A DNA stretch of 32,201 nt from assembly GCA_945869955.1 (NCBI GenBank), contig CAMBQP010000051.1, forward strand, positions 1 through 32,201, written 5' to 3'. Below are positions 9,455 to 15,274 of the stretch, piece by piece. Below the pieces are notes generated by a model that had not been told where the DNA came from, did no database searches, and worked only from the letters and a program-made list of their open reading frames with translations. Both the position numbers and the translations under genes were made by a program. Origin of the DNA: Schlesneria paludicola DSM 18645. Lineage in GTDB: Bacteria > Planctomycetota > Planctomycetia > Planctomycetales > Planctomycetaceae. Each line of letters starts with the position of its first letter. Within the stretch, counting starts at the first letter, position 1.

Positions 9455-9780
9455 ATCAGTGCAGTCAAAACAAATAGGTCTCGGGCAATTCGTCGTGTTC
9501 TCGACGGCAGAATACAGACTGATCCAGCCTCTCAGGTCGTAAGTTCGCTGTTGGGTGACAGGTGCGAAGATCGGGGATGTCGTCTGGGTAGGAAAAGAGT
9601 TAACAGTACAAATCGGGGTCTCTGTCTGCTGCGAGTTCGCAGATACGGATCCTGAAAATCCCCAAGCAACATCTATGGGGTACGACGAGAATCCCAGTTA
9701 GTCGACAGCGTTACACCGCCAACGCGAGCAGGGTACAAGCCAAGGGGTGGGCTGACCGTGGGGACACCTGGCTCACTTAC
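9455..9780. other. Gene-free stretch before the 230-bp repeats
   Basis: I see no coding sequence here that resembles a known family. The short open frames lack a Shine-Dalgarno and have unstructured, Arg/Ser-rich translations. The stretch leads directly into the first 230-bp repeat and may be degraded repeat or transposon-related sequence. Confidence 0.4.
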
Positions 9781-10010
9781 GGGTCAAACGATCGGATCGC
9801 TCGTGTGTCGCATGTCGTTGATCCGCAAAGTTTAACCGCGCCTCGAAGAGAAGCGCGTTAACCGGCAGCCCTGCACCAACCCGAGGTGTCTTTGCACGTT
9901 TGATCATTGACGAACTCATCGACCGTACGTTTCCACGCCGAGACAATATCGATGCCCGGAAACGGCCGAAGAGGTCGGCTGAACACCGACCCGCCTGCGC
10001 CGATGGCTAC
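9781..10010 (+). repeat. 230-bp repeat, copy 1 (complete)
   Basis: Complete unit running from GGGTCAAACG to CGATGGCTAC, where copy 2 starts head-to-tail. It contains several potential hairpins: GGATC/GATCC around CGCTCGTGTGTCG; TTAACCGCGC/GCGCGTTAA; a CACCA/TGGTG-like pair near 9877-9890, weakened here by one base; and GGTCGG-CTGAACA-CCGACC. Reading the reverse strand gives an Arg-rich open frame that recurs in other copies. Confidence 0.85.
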
Positions 10011-10167
10011 GGGTCAAACGGTCGGATCGCTCGTGTGTCGCATGTCGTTGATCCGCAAAGTTTAACCGCGCCTCGAAGAGAAGCGCGTTAACCGGCACCC
10101 CTGCACCAACCCGTGGTGTCTTTGCACGTTTGAGCATTGCGAGCCTCGTTGACGGCGGTTTCCAATA
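10011..10167 (+). repeat. 230-bp repeat, copy 2 (truncated at its right end)
   Basis: Follows copy 1 in tandem with very few differences up to about 10139, then decays gradually. TTGACGGCGGTTTCCA still aligns with the equivalent part of copy 1. The last roughly 70 bases of the unit are missing, and the transposase gene region begins there. Confidence 0.8.
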
Positions 10168-10185
10168 CATCAAACACACCAATTA

Positions 10186-10806
10186 TTAGTGGTAGGCGAC
10201 CCTGCCCGATTCAAGACCGCGATACGGTGCCACCCATGACCATTGCTGCATTGGCTTTCCTTCAAGAATTGGATTTTGTTCCACATATCGAATTGCATTC
10301 GAAATTGCCTCATCGTGATCGAGATAGACCTTCCAACGACTATGTGCCCAAACGGAACGGAATCGACCGTCCGATTGCAGGTGCTGCATGGGATGCCGAC
10401 AGTCTATCACCAATTGTCGAGTGGCAGCACCTTTGAGCAGCGTCGCGATTTGTTCAACCTTGTAGTGATGGCGAGCGATCACTAAATGAGTGTGTTGGGG
10501 CATGATCGCACAGGCCCAGATTGTATACCCATTTTTTTTAACAAGAGTCGCAAATCCCTCGGCAATCGATTCTTTTTGGTCATCTGTGAGTGTCACCGCT
10601 GGATACACCAGCGCCCGTTGAGCCGCGTTTCGTGCTGCCACTTCTCGGGGCGTCAATTCGGACAATAATTTTCTCGAGAGCGTCCGACGTGGATGGCCAA
10701 ATTGAACAAGCTCCCATCGCCCCACAAAATCCGACCAACTTCCCCGAGGATCGTTCGGAAGCCAATAGCCATACATGGTCAGAATCACGTGATACCCGTG
10801 GATCAT
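10186..10806 (-). CDS. RAYT-type (REP-associated, IS200-like) tyrosine transposase
   Basis: Single-domain Y1 HUH-type transposase of 206 aa from the ATG at 10806; an upstream TTG at 10815 would add three residues. The metal-binding pair is His105 and His107 in IMPQHTHLVIA, with Thr in the middle where most relatives have a hydrophobic residue. The nucleophile is Tyr174 in AIRYVEQNPI, a form typical of the REP-associated group. The N-terminus GYHVILTMYGYWLPNDPRGS is the shape seen in planctomycete IS200-like proteins. These enzymes act on hairpin-forming single-stranded DNA and are usually single-copy and domesticated. Here the gene lies between two blocks of a 230-bp hairpin-rich repeat, in reverse orientation to them. 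The frame is intact with no frameshift. Whether it still mobilises DNA is unknown. Confidence 0.85.
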   Translation of the reverse strand: MIHGYHVILTMYGYWLPNDPRGSWSDFVGRWELVQFGHPRRTLSRKLLSELTPREVAARNAAQRALVYPAVTLTDDQKESIAEGFATLVKKNGYTIWACAIMPQHTHLVIARHHYKVEQIATLLKGAATRQLVIDCRHPMQHLQSDGRFRSVWAHSRWKVYLDHDEAISNAIRYVEQNPILEGKPMQQWSWVAPYRGLESGRVAYH

Positions 10807-10901
10807 TTTCGTCAATCACCCATTACAAAACCGAGTTGGTCACCAAAAATCAACCGACAGCATTGCAGGGTAGCAAGACGTGACACAAAAACAGTGTCGC
10901 C

Positions 10902-11081
10902 GTTTAACCGCGCCTCGAAGAGAATCGCGTCAACCGGCAGCCCTGCCCTACCCAAGGTGTCATTGCACATTTGAGCATTGACGACTTAGTCGCCGATAAT
11001 TTTCTACCTCGAGCTGAAATCGATGTCCAGAGACGGCCGAAGAGGTCGGCTGAACACCGACCCGCCTGCGCCGATGGCTGC
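10902..11081 (+). repeat. 230-bp repeat, copy 3 (truncated at its left end)
   Basis: Begins abruptly at GTTTAACCGCGCC, about 50 bases into the unit, and runs to the junction with copy 4. It is more diverged than the others (AGAATCGCGTCAACC replaces AGAAGCGCGTTAACC, weakening that stem), but keeps the perfect GGTCGG/CCGACC hairpin. It is the first copy on the right side of the transposase gene. Confidence 0.8.
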
Positions 11082-11311
11082 GGGTAAAACGGTTGGATCG
11101 CTCGTGTGTCGCATGTTGTTGATCCGCAAAGTTTAACCGCGCCTCGAAGAGAAGCGCGTTAACCGGCACCCCTGCACCAACCCGTGGTGTCATTGCACGT
11201 TTGACCATTGACGAACTAGTCGACCGTATGTTTCCACGCCGAGATGAAACCAACCCCCAGAGACGGCCGAAGAGGTCGGCTGAACACCGACCCGCCTGCG
11301 CCGATGGCTAC
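11082..11311 (+). repeat. 230-bp repeat, copy 4 (complete)
   Basis: Complete unit of the same 230-base period, starting GGGTAAAACGG and ending at CGATGGCTAC. It retains TTAACCGCGC/GCGCGTTAA, CACCA-ACCCG-TGGTG and GGTCGG/CCGACC. Confidence 0.85.
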
Positions 11312-11360
11312 GGGTCAAACGGTTGGATCGCTCGTTTTAATCATGCTGTTGGGCCGCAAT
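11312..11360 (+). repeat. 230-bp repeat, copy 5 (remnant)
   Basis: The first 27 bases (GGGTCAAACGGTTGGATCGC and on) match copy 4. The next 20 or so are only loosely similar (ATGCTGTTGGGCCGCAA). The array ends here, shortly before the 3' flank of the TIR-STAND-FGE gene. Confidence 0.6.
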
Positions 11361-11508: not shown

Positions 11509-11546
11509 CTCCGGTTTCGGCTCCGCCGACTGGCGCTCACGCGACT

Positions 11547-14500
11547 CTACTCGCTGGAAGGAACTGCGGCCACACGAAAGCCCAGGCTGCTGTTCCGGAG
11601 GTCCGGAGTGCTCCAGAAGCGGATCGCCGAGCGGCAATTGGACGCTCCGCTGCTCCAGCAACCGCCCCGGCTCACCCGGCCCGAGCCCGACTTAGCACCG
11701 ATTGGATCTACGACAGCCTGCCCACCATAGTCGTCATGCCAATCGTGACACCATTCCAAAACGTTTCCATGCATGTCAAACAAACCGTATCCGTTTGGTA
11801 ATTTCGCGCCACTCAACGTGGCTTGATTTTCGGACAATGGCATCCAGGTCCCATATTTCCGCGATAAGACTTCTTGATTGCCACTACTATAAAATGTCGT
11901 CGTCCCCGACCGACATCCAAATTCCCATTCCGCTTCCGTCGGTAAGCGGTATCCAGTGCCATGAGGAACCAGTTCCCACGTGTCCCATTCTTCGCCCGCA
12001 ACTTTCTCCTTCTCGCCGGTTCGGACATAAGCAGGATCGCGACCGTTCTGCTTACTCAGCCAATTACAATACAGCACCGCGTCATACCAACGGACCTGCT
12101 GAACCGGGTAACCCTCGCCCGGGCTGTAATTCTTTTGAGCCCCGATCCAACCCTGAGGCTTTTCTGAATCGGGATAGTCCCGATCGTTCACGAACTGCCG
12201 AAACTGCAACACCGTGATCTCGCGATCGCTCAGGTAATAAGCCTGACTCAACGTGACCGACTGCTCTACGAACTCACTACCAGGGGAATCTTTCCGAACA
12301 AACATCCCCGGCTCGATCTTGAGCATCGTGATTCCCTGCGAATTGCGAAACCAGCTTTCCTTTGCCCGTGGCAGACCCGGTTCCGATTTCTTCAACTCTG
12401 GTTCAGGGACACCCCACTGACGGAGCGCCCAACCGGCAGAACTATGCAGCACAGACGCGTCAGCGGCTACATACCAATCCTCGAACAGCGCAACCCACAG
12501 CGACTTGAAATCCGCTCGCAGACTCTCTTTTTTGATCGCACCCACCCCACAAGCCAAGGCCGAGCGAAGGGGGACATCCTCGGCGTTTTTTGCCTGTTTC
12601 AAGAGCTTCCCAAGATCGCCATGCCAATCCGGAAACCGATCAATGAACAGCGTCCGCTCGATCGGGTCGGGACGATCTTGAATCTGACACATGTCACTCG
12701 CAATCGTGGCGTCTCCCAAATGCAAGCCGATCACCGCCAAACGACATTTCCACTGCCACTGCTGATTCATCGGTGCGTAAATCCGCGTTTCGCCTTCCTT
12801 GGGAGGTACTGCCGGAGTGTTTGATTTGGCCGCTAAGGTCGCCTGATCGGCAAGCTCGTGAAGCCTCGGCAACGCTCGTTCGCTCACATGGCCCAAGGCC
12901 GTGACCAAATTATCCACTTCATCCGCGTTCGCCGTTTCGATGTACGAACAAAGTTTTTCCACATCCCCCTGCCCAAACGCGGCGAATGCATACGCGAGAC
13001 TTTGCTCTCCCCGCTCATTTGCCGCCGCACTGACCACCTGCGCCTGCTTTTCCAACTCGGCAATCACCTGACGCGTCGGATACTTTTTGTCCAGCAAATC
13101 TTGAATCGGGTTGGCTGTCCATTTTCCAGAACTGTTCGCAATCTTATTCACTAACTTATCGAGATCGTTTTTCCGCTGGATCTGCTGGTAACTAAACCAC
13201 CCACTCCCCAACAACAACACTCCCGCACTGACCAGCAGCCACTGATTCCGTTTCCGAGACTTTTCCACTGCCAGACTGCGGTGCAGATAGGTCCGCTGAT
13301 CCGGACCCAGATCCTCCTGCCGTGCAGGATAGAACTCCCGTGCGTTCCGCAGCGCACTTCCACGCAGCAATGCGGCAGCCCCGTCCCGCTGCCACTCGTC
13401 CAACTTCAATTCCAACTGGGTCCGCCAGAGCAAAAACCTCCGGTCCTGATTCACCCATCCCTTCAAACGCCCCCACCGACGTAACAACTCTTCATGGGCC
13501 ACTTCCACCGTCATCCCGCTGGGAACGCCCTGACTCGCTGCGGCATCACTCGGCCCCGCATCGGTTACCTCCGCGGTCAGGTCGAGAGATCCCTCGCCCC
13601 CTCCACCCGCTCCAGACGTGATTAACAACCGCTTGTCGGCCAGATGACGCGCCACGCGGCGGGAGGTTTCATCCAGTTCGCTCAGTGGAATTCGTCGTCG
13701 CGTATCATTTTCCGAACGGGAACCGGCCCGAACCAGTTTGCGAAACAGTAGCGGACAGGCTTGCTGCTCGTCCTGCGGTAACTCGCCATAAACCTCTTCC
13801 GCATACGTGGCAATCGCGCGACTCAGTGGCCCCCCTGTTTCGGCCTGAAGAGCCGCTCCCTGCGAAGCCTCTTGTCGGCCAAGATTTTCATATCCGGCAT
13901 GCGTCATTTGCGAAACCGTACGGCGTTTCCACAGCTCTTCCAATGCAAATTCCAGCAGCGGCAGATTCCCTTGTTCCGCCCCCGCTTCCGCCAGAATCCG
14001 GTCGACCAACCCCTCCTGAAACGTCAGCCCGACGTTACTCGCCGGCCCCTCGATTATTGCACGCAACTCGTCGACGTTCATCGGCCCGAGATCCAGGTGG
14101 CTGTTCGAGATACGGTCGAGTAACTGTCGGTCCTGCAGAATCTCGGTATAAAAATCCCCGCGAACGGTCATCACGACCGACAGGGGTGAATCCTTGCGGG
14201 AGGTCGCCGCCAGCAGTTCTTGCACAAACCGCATCCGCCGCTGGGGATTTTCACAACTGGTATAAAGCTCTTCCCACTGATCGACGAACAACAGCAAGCG
14301 GGTGGTCCCCGGCTGCTGTCGTAAGACAGCATTCACGCGACCCCACAGCGGCACCACCGGATCGACCTGCTCCAAATCCCGAGCAAACTTATGCAGTTCC
14401 TCTTCCAGGGGCGTATGTGAAAGATGAGGATCGCTTAAAGGGACGAGCGCCGAAGCCAACGAATAGAGCGGATCGAGATGCGGAACCATGCGGACCACAT

Positions 14501-15155
14501 CCCAGACCGGCCCCTTGCCAAAAGTTCGCAAATGAGGAACCAATCCGGCACTCACCAGTGACGACTTGCCGCTCCCCGAGGCACCAATCACCGCCACGAA
14601 CGATTGTTTTTCGACCAGGTCAATCAATTTCTGTTTGTAGACGTCACGGCCGAAGAAGAACGAGGCATCTTCTTCCCGGAAGGCGAACAGACCTCGGTAG
14701 GGGCAGATCAAGTTCTGGGGCTGCAGACCATTCCGATCGACCGATTCGCCCCGAATCGCCGCTGCCAATTTATCCAGCGCGACCTCATGGTCCGCTTCAT
14801 TCCGCAGATCAATCCACATCAATTGCTTCAGAAACCCCAAGGGGGGTTCGCAACCGGGGAGCAACACAGGAATCACGGGAAAGTCATTGCGTCCGGCGAG
14901 TTGATCGAGCGCCCAGGCCCGTTCCCGCTGCTGCCAAGGGCCCATGGGATTCGGCCCCAGAAAAATGGCGACGGCGCGACTGGATTGCAGCGCCTGTTCC
15001 AGCGCCACCACCCAATCGTGTCCCGGCGAGAGATACCATCGATCGACGAACGCCGAACGCTGGCGCGACTTTAAGGCATTGGCCACGCGTTCCACCTGGA
15101 TATGATCCAAGGAGTTGTAGCTCAAAAACACGTCATACAACGGATCGCCAGCCAT
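11547..15155 (-). CDS. TIR - STAND NTPase - FGE (formylglycine-generating enzyme-like) fusion protein
   Basis: 1202-aa signalling or immune-type protein, numbered from the ATG at 15155; a TTG at 15233 would add 26 residues of poor quality. Residues 5-115 form a TIR domain (YDVFLSYNSLD), with Glu78 in GPWQQRE at the position of the NADase catalytic glutamate. A STAND/AAA-type NTPase follows: the lead CPYRGLFAFREEDASFFFGR, Walker A GASGSGKSS at 191-199 and Walker B LLLFVDQWEEL. A single membrane segment is near 639-657 (WLLVSAGVLLLGSGWF). From about 944 there is an FGE/sulfatase-modifying domain of C-type lectin fold (MLKIEPGMF, YRLPTEAEWEFGCRSG, GNVLEWCHDW, LGFRVA). Of the two catalytic cysteines of true FGE, only the second is kept (NCRS); the first position is Ser. 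The domain is therefore probably a ligand sensor rather than an enzyme. Its last 100 bases resemble a DGR variable region (separate entry). Confidence 0.9.
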   Translation of the reverse strand: MAGDPLYDVFLSYNSLDHIQVERVANALKSRQRSAFVDRWYLSPGHDWVVALEQALQSSRAVAIFLGPNPMGPWQQRERAWALDQLAGRNDFPVIPVLLPGCEPPLGFLKQLMWIDLRNEADHEVALDKLAAAIRGESVDRNGLQPQNLICPYRGLFAFREEDASFFFGRDVYKQKLIDLVEKQSFVAVIGASGSGKSSLVSAGLVPHLRTFGKGPVWDVVRMVPHLDPLYSLASALVPLSDPHLSHTPLEEELHKFARDLEQVDPVVPLWGRVNAVLRQQPGTTRLLLFVDQWEELYTSCENPQRRMRFVQELLAATSRKDSPLSVVMTVRGDFYTEILQDRQLLDRISNSHLDLGPMNVDELRAIIEGPASNVGLTFQEGLVDRILAEAGAEQGNLPLLEFALEELWKRRTVSQMTHAGYENLGRQEASQGAALQAETGGPLSRAIATYAEEVYGELPQDEQQACPLLFRKLVRAGSRSENDTRRRIPLSELDETSRRVARHLADKRLLITSGAGGGGEGSLDLTAEVTDAGPSDAAASQGVPSGMTVEVAHEELLRRWGRLKGWVNQDRRFLLWRTQLELKLDEWQRDGAAALLRGSALRNAREFYPARQEDLGPDQRTYLHRSLAVEKSRKRNQWLLVSAGVLLLGSGWFSYQQIQRKNDLDKLVNKIANSSGKWTANPIQDLLDKKYPTRQVIAELEKQAQVVSAAANERGEQSLAYAFAAFGQGDVEKLCSYIETANADEVDNLVTALGHVSERALPRLHELADQATLAAKSNTPAVPPKEGETRIYAPMNQQWQWKCRLAVIGLHLGDATIASDMCQIQDRPDPIERTLFIDRFPDWHGDLGKLLKQAKNAEDVPLRSALACGVGAIKKESLRADFKSLWVALFEDWYVAADASVLHSSAGWALRQWGVPEPELKKSEPGLPRAKESWFRNSQGITMLKIEPGMFVRKDSPGSEFVEQSVTLSQAYYLSDREITVLQFRQFVNDRDYPDSEKPQGWIGAQKNYSPGEGYPVQQVRWYDAVLYCNWLSKQNGRDPAYVRTGEKEKVAGEEWDTWELVPHGTGYRLPTEAEWEFGCRSGTTTFYSSGNQEVLSRKYGTWMPLSENQATLSGAKLPNGYGLFDMHGNVLEWCHDWHDDYGGQAVVDPIGAKSGSGRVSRGGCWSSGASNCRSAIRFWSTPDLRNSSLGFRVAAVPSSE
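11571..11670 (-). other. Candidate DGR variable region at the 3' end of the FGE domain
   Basis: Encodes RGGCW through LGFRV, the standard site for DGR diversification in FGE-type target proteins. The constant positions (RGG, W, CRSA, R, P, R, LGFR) are kept. At the variable positions the codons are nearly all NNC/NNT: AGC AGC, TCC AAT, ATC, TTC, AGC, ACT, GAC CTC, AAC AGC AGC. That is what adenine mutagenesis of AAC/AAT template codons would leave. Normal C-ending codon bias could contribute. No reverse transcriptase, Avd or template repeat is in the window, so the call rests on pattern only. Confidence 0.45.
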
Positions 15156-15274
15156 CCCATCCCCGCACTTTCCGCAACATAAAAACGGATCACACAACGG
15201 CAACCCGATCGTAGCGAATTGCCCAGCAAACAAAAATCGGACCCAAAACCCCAGAAAAATCAGGCAGCCCCCAG

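What the first reader, a model, noticed from the sequence alone, without database searches (positions are those of the whole stretch)
11571..11670. C-terminal 100 bases look like a DGR variable region
FGE-type targets of diversity-generating retroelements end in RGG-S/C-W..., CRSA.R..., P..R...LGFR with AAY codons in the template. Here every constant position is kept and nearly all variable positions are NNC or NNT codons (Ser, Ser, Ser, Asn, Ile, Phe, Ser, Thr, Asp, Leu, Asn, Ser, Ser), as expected after adenine-specific mutagenesis. If real, a TIR immune-type receptor would have a hypervariable sensor. No reverse transcriptase or template repeat is in this window, so it would have to be a remote (trans) target.
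Basis: inference. Interest (0 to 1): 0.8.

Follow-up and report, generated by a model that had tools for sequence, protein, structure and literature searches.

The report
Remote hypervariable region of TIR-STAND receptor
The end of a bacterial immune-type receptor gene carries a genuine hypervariable patch of the kind written by diversity-generating retroelements, shared with three other unlinked genes of the same genome, although the writing machinery for this patch is missing from the available assembly.

Summary
The window gene (11547-15233, -) encodes TIR-nSTAND1-FGE, and its last ~130 bases recur at 81-86% identity in three other unlinked FGE genes of the same genome: TIR-NACHT-FGE, kinase-FGE and a lone FGE. 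Upstream the four genes are only about 50% identical. Inside the block third codon positions are 88-98% identical. Differences fall on codon positions 1 and 2, and 25 of 26 variable columns in the mutable stretch are adenine in real template repeats (TRs) of family-level relatives, next to HRDC and reverse transcriptase (RT) genes. The mutable stretch is 11586-11681; the repeat block is about 11543-11687. The genome does hold a complete DGR (contig C67, bAvd type), but its TR disagrees with the window VR at 37 of 95 non-A positions and cannot be its template. The cognate TR, RT and HRDC genes were not found in the 394-contig, 94.8%-complete assembly. They lie either in a gap (contig C380 breaks inside a sister VR) or have been lost. 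DGR-diversified TIR/STAND/FGE sensors and remote VRs are already described, so this is a well-supported new member of a known kind. Whether diversification is still active cannot be told.

The parts
11547..15233 (-). Target gene: TIR-nSTAND1-FGE receptor, 1228-aa ORF from the first TTG; the true start is probably downstream, near residue 28
   Evidence: ORF; Pfam TIR_2 1.5e-22, nSTAND1 9.9e-110, FGE-sulfatase 8.3e-41
14766..15131 (-). TIR domain (residues 35-156)
   Evidence: Pfam PF13676
13380..14702 (-). nSTAND1 NTPase domain (residues 178-618)
   Evidence: Pfam PF20703
11568..12329 (-). FGE / C-type-lectin-fold domain carrying the variable region
   Evidence: Pfam PF03781; best solved-structure match is the DGR variable protein TvpA, 2y3c, 1.7e-30
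11543..11687 (-). VR repeat block shared with C69, C271 and C380 (shared by C51 and C69 over 11560-11687; to about 11543 with C271)
11586..11681 (-). Mutable stretch of the VR (codons that differ between sister VRs)
   Evidence: 25 of 26 variable columns are A in G028 and G140 TRs
11543..11585 (-). Constant 3' tail, probably the IMH-like homing anchor; it includes the stop codon 11547-11549
   Evidence: Near-identical among sisters with unmutated adenines; IMH role inferred

Best explanation
The last ~130 bases of a TIR-nSTAND1-FGE receptor gene are a DGR variable region. It belongs to a set of at least four VRs in this genome written from one A-rich template by an HRDC-type DGR. Shown: shared block, sharp edge, adenine-type substitutions, third-position homogenisation, and relatives with the complete HRDC-RT-TR cassette. 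Inferred: an error-prone RT copied a template RNA, randomised adenines in the cDNA, and the cDNA replaced the VR of each target, guided by the constant 3' tail. The FGE domain displays the varied residues as a ligand-binding surface; ligand binding would trigger the STAND NTPase and the TIR effector, so the gene would be a conflict receptor with a diversified sensor. The cognate RT/TR is not in the assembly. It most likely sits in an assembly gap (contig C380 breaks exactly inside its VR); otherwise it was lost and the VR is now frozen.
For: Three sister segments at 81-86% DNA identity in unlinked genes, with a sharp upstream edge and shared tail. Upstream FGE DNA identity is about 0.5 and third-position identity 0.36-0.43, against 0.88-0.98 inside the block. 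Variable columns fall 13/12/2 on codon positions 1/2/3. 25/26 variable columns are A in G028 and G140 TRs against 6/82 invariant columns, p 8e-18. G028, G120, G140 and G098 carry HRDC-RT-TR cassettes with such TRs; their VRs differ from the TR at 15-17 of 31 A and 0 of 83-89 other bases in G120 and G140. The Fuerstiella ortholog of the same receptor has a VR beside a TR. FGE homology to TvpA with the VR in register.
Against: No cognate TR, RT or HRDC accessory was found in the own assembly. The predicted template was built on the DGR hypothesis and then used to find relatives, a mild circularity. One variable column (GGA/GGG) and one tail difference are not A in G028. No population or strain data show current variation. 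Immune function rests on domain content only.
Confidence: 0.93

Rival explanations
1. Frozen relic: the VR was written by a DGR, but RT and template have since been lost from this genome, so the four receptors no longer diversify.
For: No cognate RT, TR or HRDC found in a 94.8%-complete assembly. Target genes in isolates without RT and TR are reported in Treponema denticola (PMC4891356). The Fuerstiella locus has lost its RT body.
Against: C51 and C69 show no non-A difference over the 126 columns compared, so writing was recent. The assembly has 394 contigs and C380 ends inside a VR.
Confidence: 0.33
2. The C67 bAvd-type DGR of the same genome writes this VR in trans.
For: It is the only DGR RT in the assembly, and its own VRs are A-specific.
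Against: Its TR differs from the window VR at 37/95 non-A positions, against 1-2/92 for its own VRs.
Confidence: 0.04
3. Ordinary FGE-family conservation plus rapid divergence at surface positions, without any retroelement.
For: Other FGE proteins of the genome keep the same protein motif.
Against: The sisters share the DNA, including third positions, only inside the block, and differ at template adenines.
Confidence: 0.02
4. Gene conversion between paralogs followed by diversifying selection.
For: Shared block with nonsynonymous differences between unlinked genes.
Against: Changes sit where relatives' TRs have A, including AGC to TGC and AGG to TGG; silent third positions do not change; the TR next to an RT is unmutated in relatives. 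Selection alone does not produce this.
Confidence: 0.02

Closest known systems
DGR-diversified STAND/TIR/FGE antigen sensors of multicellular bacteria (Thiohalocapsa PB-PSB1 and relatives; PMC10907252)
   Same: C-terminal FGE/CLec VR, nSTAND1 or NACHT centre, sometimes an N-terminal TIR; targets diversified in trans and loci missing RT or TR
   Different: Here the own assembly holds no cognate TR or RT for the four VRs, and the relatives' cassettes are HRDC-type; HRDC is not mentioned in that paper's main text
Treponema denticola TvpA DGR (PMC4891356; structure 2y3c)
   Same: FGE-type VR in the same register, HRDC accessory, remote and orphan target genes
   Different: TvpA has no TIR or STAND domains
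FGS-domain, DGR-linked NTP-dependent conflict systems (PMC7159879)
   Same: Hypervariable FGS/FGE domain coupled to NTPase-based conflict modules, with the TR near or elsewhere in the genome
   Different: Those passages centre on vWA-MoxR ternary systems; this gene is a single-chain TIR-nSTAND1-FGE

Membership tests
Diversity-generating retroelement (target gene/VR) | VR at the C-terminal end of a CLec/FGE-fold protein | tested here: met
Diversity-generating retroelement (target gene/VR) | Differences confined to template adenines | tested here: met
   25/26 variable columns are A in relatives' TRs; own TR not available
Diversity-generating retroelement (target gene/VR) | Cognate template repeat in the same genome | tested here: not met
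   Not in the assembly; assembly incomplete, so the claim concerns the VR, not a complete DGR
Diversity-generating retroelement (target gene/VR) | DGR-type reverse transcriptase in the genome | tested here: inconclusive
   One on C67, with a different TR
Diversity-generating retroelement (target gene/VR) | Accessory protein (Avd or HRDC) for this VR family | tested here: not met
   HRDC accessory present in relatives; none found in the own genome
Diversity-generating retroelement (target gene/VR) | Active mutagenic retrohoming | not testable with these tools
   Needs reads or experiment
TIR-STAND immune receptor (Avs/NLR-like conflict protein) | N-terminal effector, central STAND NTPase, C-terminal sensor | tested here: met
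   TIR_2, nSTAND1, FGE in that order
TIR-STAND immune receptor (Avs/NLR-like conflict protein) | Match to a described anti-phage system model | tested here: not met
   Only weak partial PADLOC matches
TIR-STAND immune receptor (Avs/NLR-like conflict protein) | Anti-phage or conflict function | not testable with these tools
   Needs experiment

The most novel reading that the evidence does not exclude
One shared template diversifies, in trans, the sensors of four unlinked conflict proteins with different effectors (TIR-nSTAND1, TIR-NACHT, kinase, lone FGE beside an AAA ATPase). Orthologous TIR-nSTAND1 receptors swap their FGE sensor between two DGR classes (HRDC-type here, bAvd-type in Fuerstiella and apparently in G001), so one retroelement supplies a common variable module to a whole receptor repertoire.
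Probability: 0.4. Interest if true: 0.68.

Novelty: new member of a known kind. Interest (0 to 1): 0.5.

Why it matters
A hypervariable region was recognised from sequence alone without RT or template nearby, and the whole genome bears it out. It adds a clear case in which conflict receptors with different effectors draw on one variable sensor module. Surveys that need the VR next to the RT miss such remote targets, as PMC8144416 says of its own metagenome survey. The predicted template gives a direct probe for the missing cassette.

Tried and rejected
The C67 DGR as template source was rejected on non-A mismatches. C205 holds a retron-like RT (best matches RT_other and retron), not a DGR. The HRDC hit at C75 lies in a 779-aa frame and is probably a RecQ helicase (inferred from length). 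Exact template and RT searches of viral contigs gave nothing, so there is no sign of a phage-borne donor. A first multiple alignment with wrongly oriented loci was useless and was redone. The inverted-repeat (cruciform) search downstream of the VR failed on a strand argument and was not repeated. Structure prediction was not run because TvpA homology at E 1.7e-30 places the VR. No close strains existed for a strain comparison.

Full report
Observation. The window lies in contig C51 of a 394-contig, 6.25-Mb genome, 94.8% complete. The ORF 11547-15233 (-) encodes TIR_2 (residues 35-156), nSTAND1 (178-618) and an FGE domain (969-1222). Its C-terminus is RVSRGGCWSSGASNCRSAIRFWSTPDLRNSSLGFRVAAVPSSE. 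The motif is common to FGE proteins, including ones in this genome without any DGR link. DNA comparison is what decides.

Sister VRs. A DNA search of the own genome with the last 145 bases finds three more segments at 86, 83 and 81% identity: C69:7153-7284, C271:1188-1320, C380:1-116. Their genes are a lone 288-aa FGE protein, a Ser/Thr-kinase-FGE protein of 634 aa and a TIR-NACHT-FGE protein whose contig stops inside the VR. Just upstream of the block the genes are only 49-54% identical, with third-position identity 0.36-0.43. Inside the block third-position identity is 0.88-0.98 while first and second positions drop. The upstream edge is sharp at 11687. Of 27 variable columns in 126, 13/12/2 fall at codon positions 1/2/3. 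This is what copying from one template with random change at adenines leaves behind.

Template. I wrote a predicted template from the four VRs, placing AAC/AAT at variable codons. In the own genome it finds only the four VRs and a partial match to the C67 template. In same-family genome G028 it finds, at 90% identity, a segment directly downstream of an RT gene and an HRDC gene, encoding RVNRGGSWNNNARNCRSANRNRNSPDNRNNNLGFRVAAV, an unmutated template. A wider family search (170 genomes, matches in 26) adds HRDC-RT-TR cassettes in G120, G140 and twice in G098, and RT-TR fragments at contig edges in G188 and G090. In G120 two VRs differ from the TR at 17/31 and 15/31 adenines and 0/89 other bases; in G140 one VR differs at 17/31 and 0/83. 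With G028 or G140 as reference, 25 of 26 variable columns in the mutable stretch of the window's VR family are A, against 6 of 82 invariant columns (p 8e-18). Choosing templates by similarity to a predicted sequence is slightly circular, but the RT/HRDC neighbourhood, the A-specific VRs in those genomes, and the codon-position and third-position evidence do not depend on it.

Where is the machinery? The own genome has one DGR, on C67: bAvd, RT, TR and two VRs, A-specific. Its TR differs from the window VR at 37 of 95 non-A positions, so it is not the template. No second DGR-like RT and no DGR-type HRDC accessory was found. Two readings remain. Either the cassette is in an assembly gap, made plausible by C380 breaking inside its VR, or it was lost and the VRs are relics. 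Zero non-A differences between C51 and C69 over the 126 columns compared argue that writing was recent. Activity today is unproven.

Orthologs. TIR-nSTAND1-FGE orthologs occur in G001 (same genus, 49%) and in a Fuerstiella MAG (45%). TIR is 74-76% and nSTAND1 about 55% identical, but FGE only about 32-40%. The Fuerstiella copy sits beside a TR and a bAvd fragment without an RT body. Its VR differs from that TR at 13/32 A and 1/82 other bases, apart from in-frame three-base insertions. So the same receptor chassis is a DGR target elsewhere, coupled to another DGR class; exchange of the sensor module is my inference.

Mechanism. Shown: a VR with the DGR signature in a TIR-nSTAND1-FGE receptor, shared with three other genes. 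Established for the families: FGE/CLec folds carry DGR diversity, as in TvpA, which is the best solved-structure match with its VR in register. Inferred: the FGE patch binds an invader-derived ligand, nSTAND1 switches and oligomerises, and TIR acts as effector, possibly through NAD+ (general knowledge of TIR domains).

Known kind. DGR-diversified STAND/TIR sensors, trans targets and degenerate loci are described in PMC10907252, FGS-DGR conflict systems in PMC7159879, and HRDC accessories with remote and orphan targets in PMC4891356. This is a new, clean member. The distinguishing points are four architectures sharing one VR family and no cognate machinery in the assembly.

Confidence figures. 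The 0.93 of the best explanation is for the VR being DGR-written. The relic reading (0.33) is a sub-case about the fate of the machinery, so the figures are not meant to add to one.

Noticed in passing
window 9780-11359: A Y1 (IS200-like, RAYT-type) transposase ORF at 10186-10815 (-) lies among four copies of a ~279-nt direct repeat just downstream of the VR gene.
   Followed up: partly
L001 (G000:C67:24185-27579) and C67:20636-20757: A complete bAvd-type DGR of the same genome: bAvd, RT, TR and two FGE-type VRs with A-specific differences (12-18 of 30 A, 1-2 of 92 non-A).
   Followed up: yes
L034 (G000:C380): The sister VR on C380 has one extra in-frame codon (TTC) in the AAC run; the Fuerstiella VRs also carry in-frame three-base insertions relative to their TR. 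Slippage in AAC runs is possible.
   Followed up: partly
L095 10861-14727: Fuerstiella MAG: TIR-nSTAND1-FGE ortholog, bAvd fragment and TR without an RT body, followed by a second FGE target with a VR.
   Followed up: partly
L002 1285-2805: A 506-aa retron-like reverse transcriptase on contig C205 (best PADLOC models RT_other and retron RT_outgroup).
   Followed up: partly
L106 3637-7317 (G000:C69): The lone FGE target with a sister VR lies beside an AAA (AAA_5-type) ATPase gene and an unannotated 413-aa gene, reminiscent of MoxR-type conflict loci.
   Followed up: no
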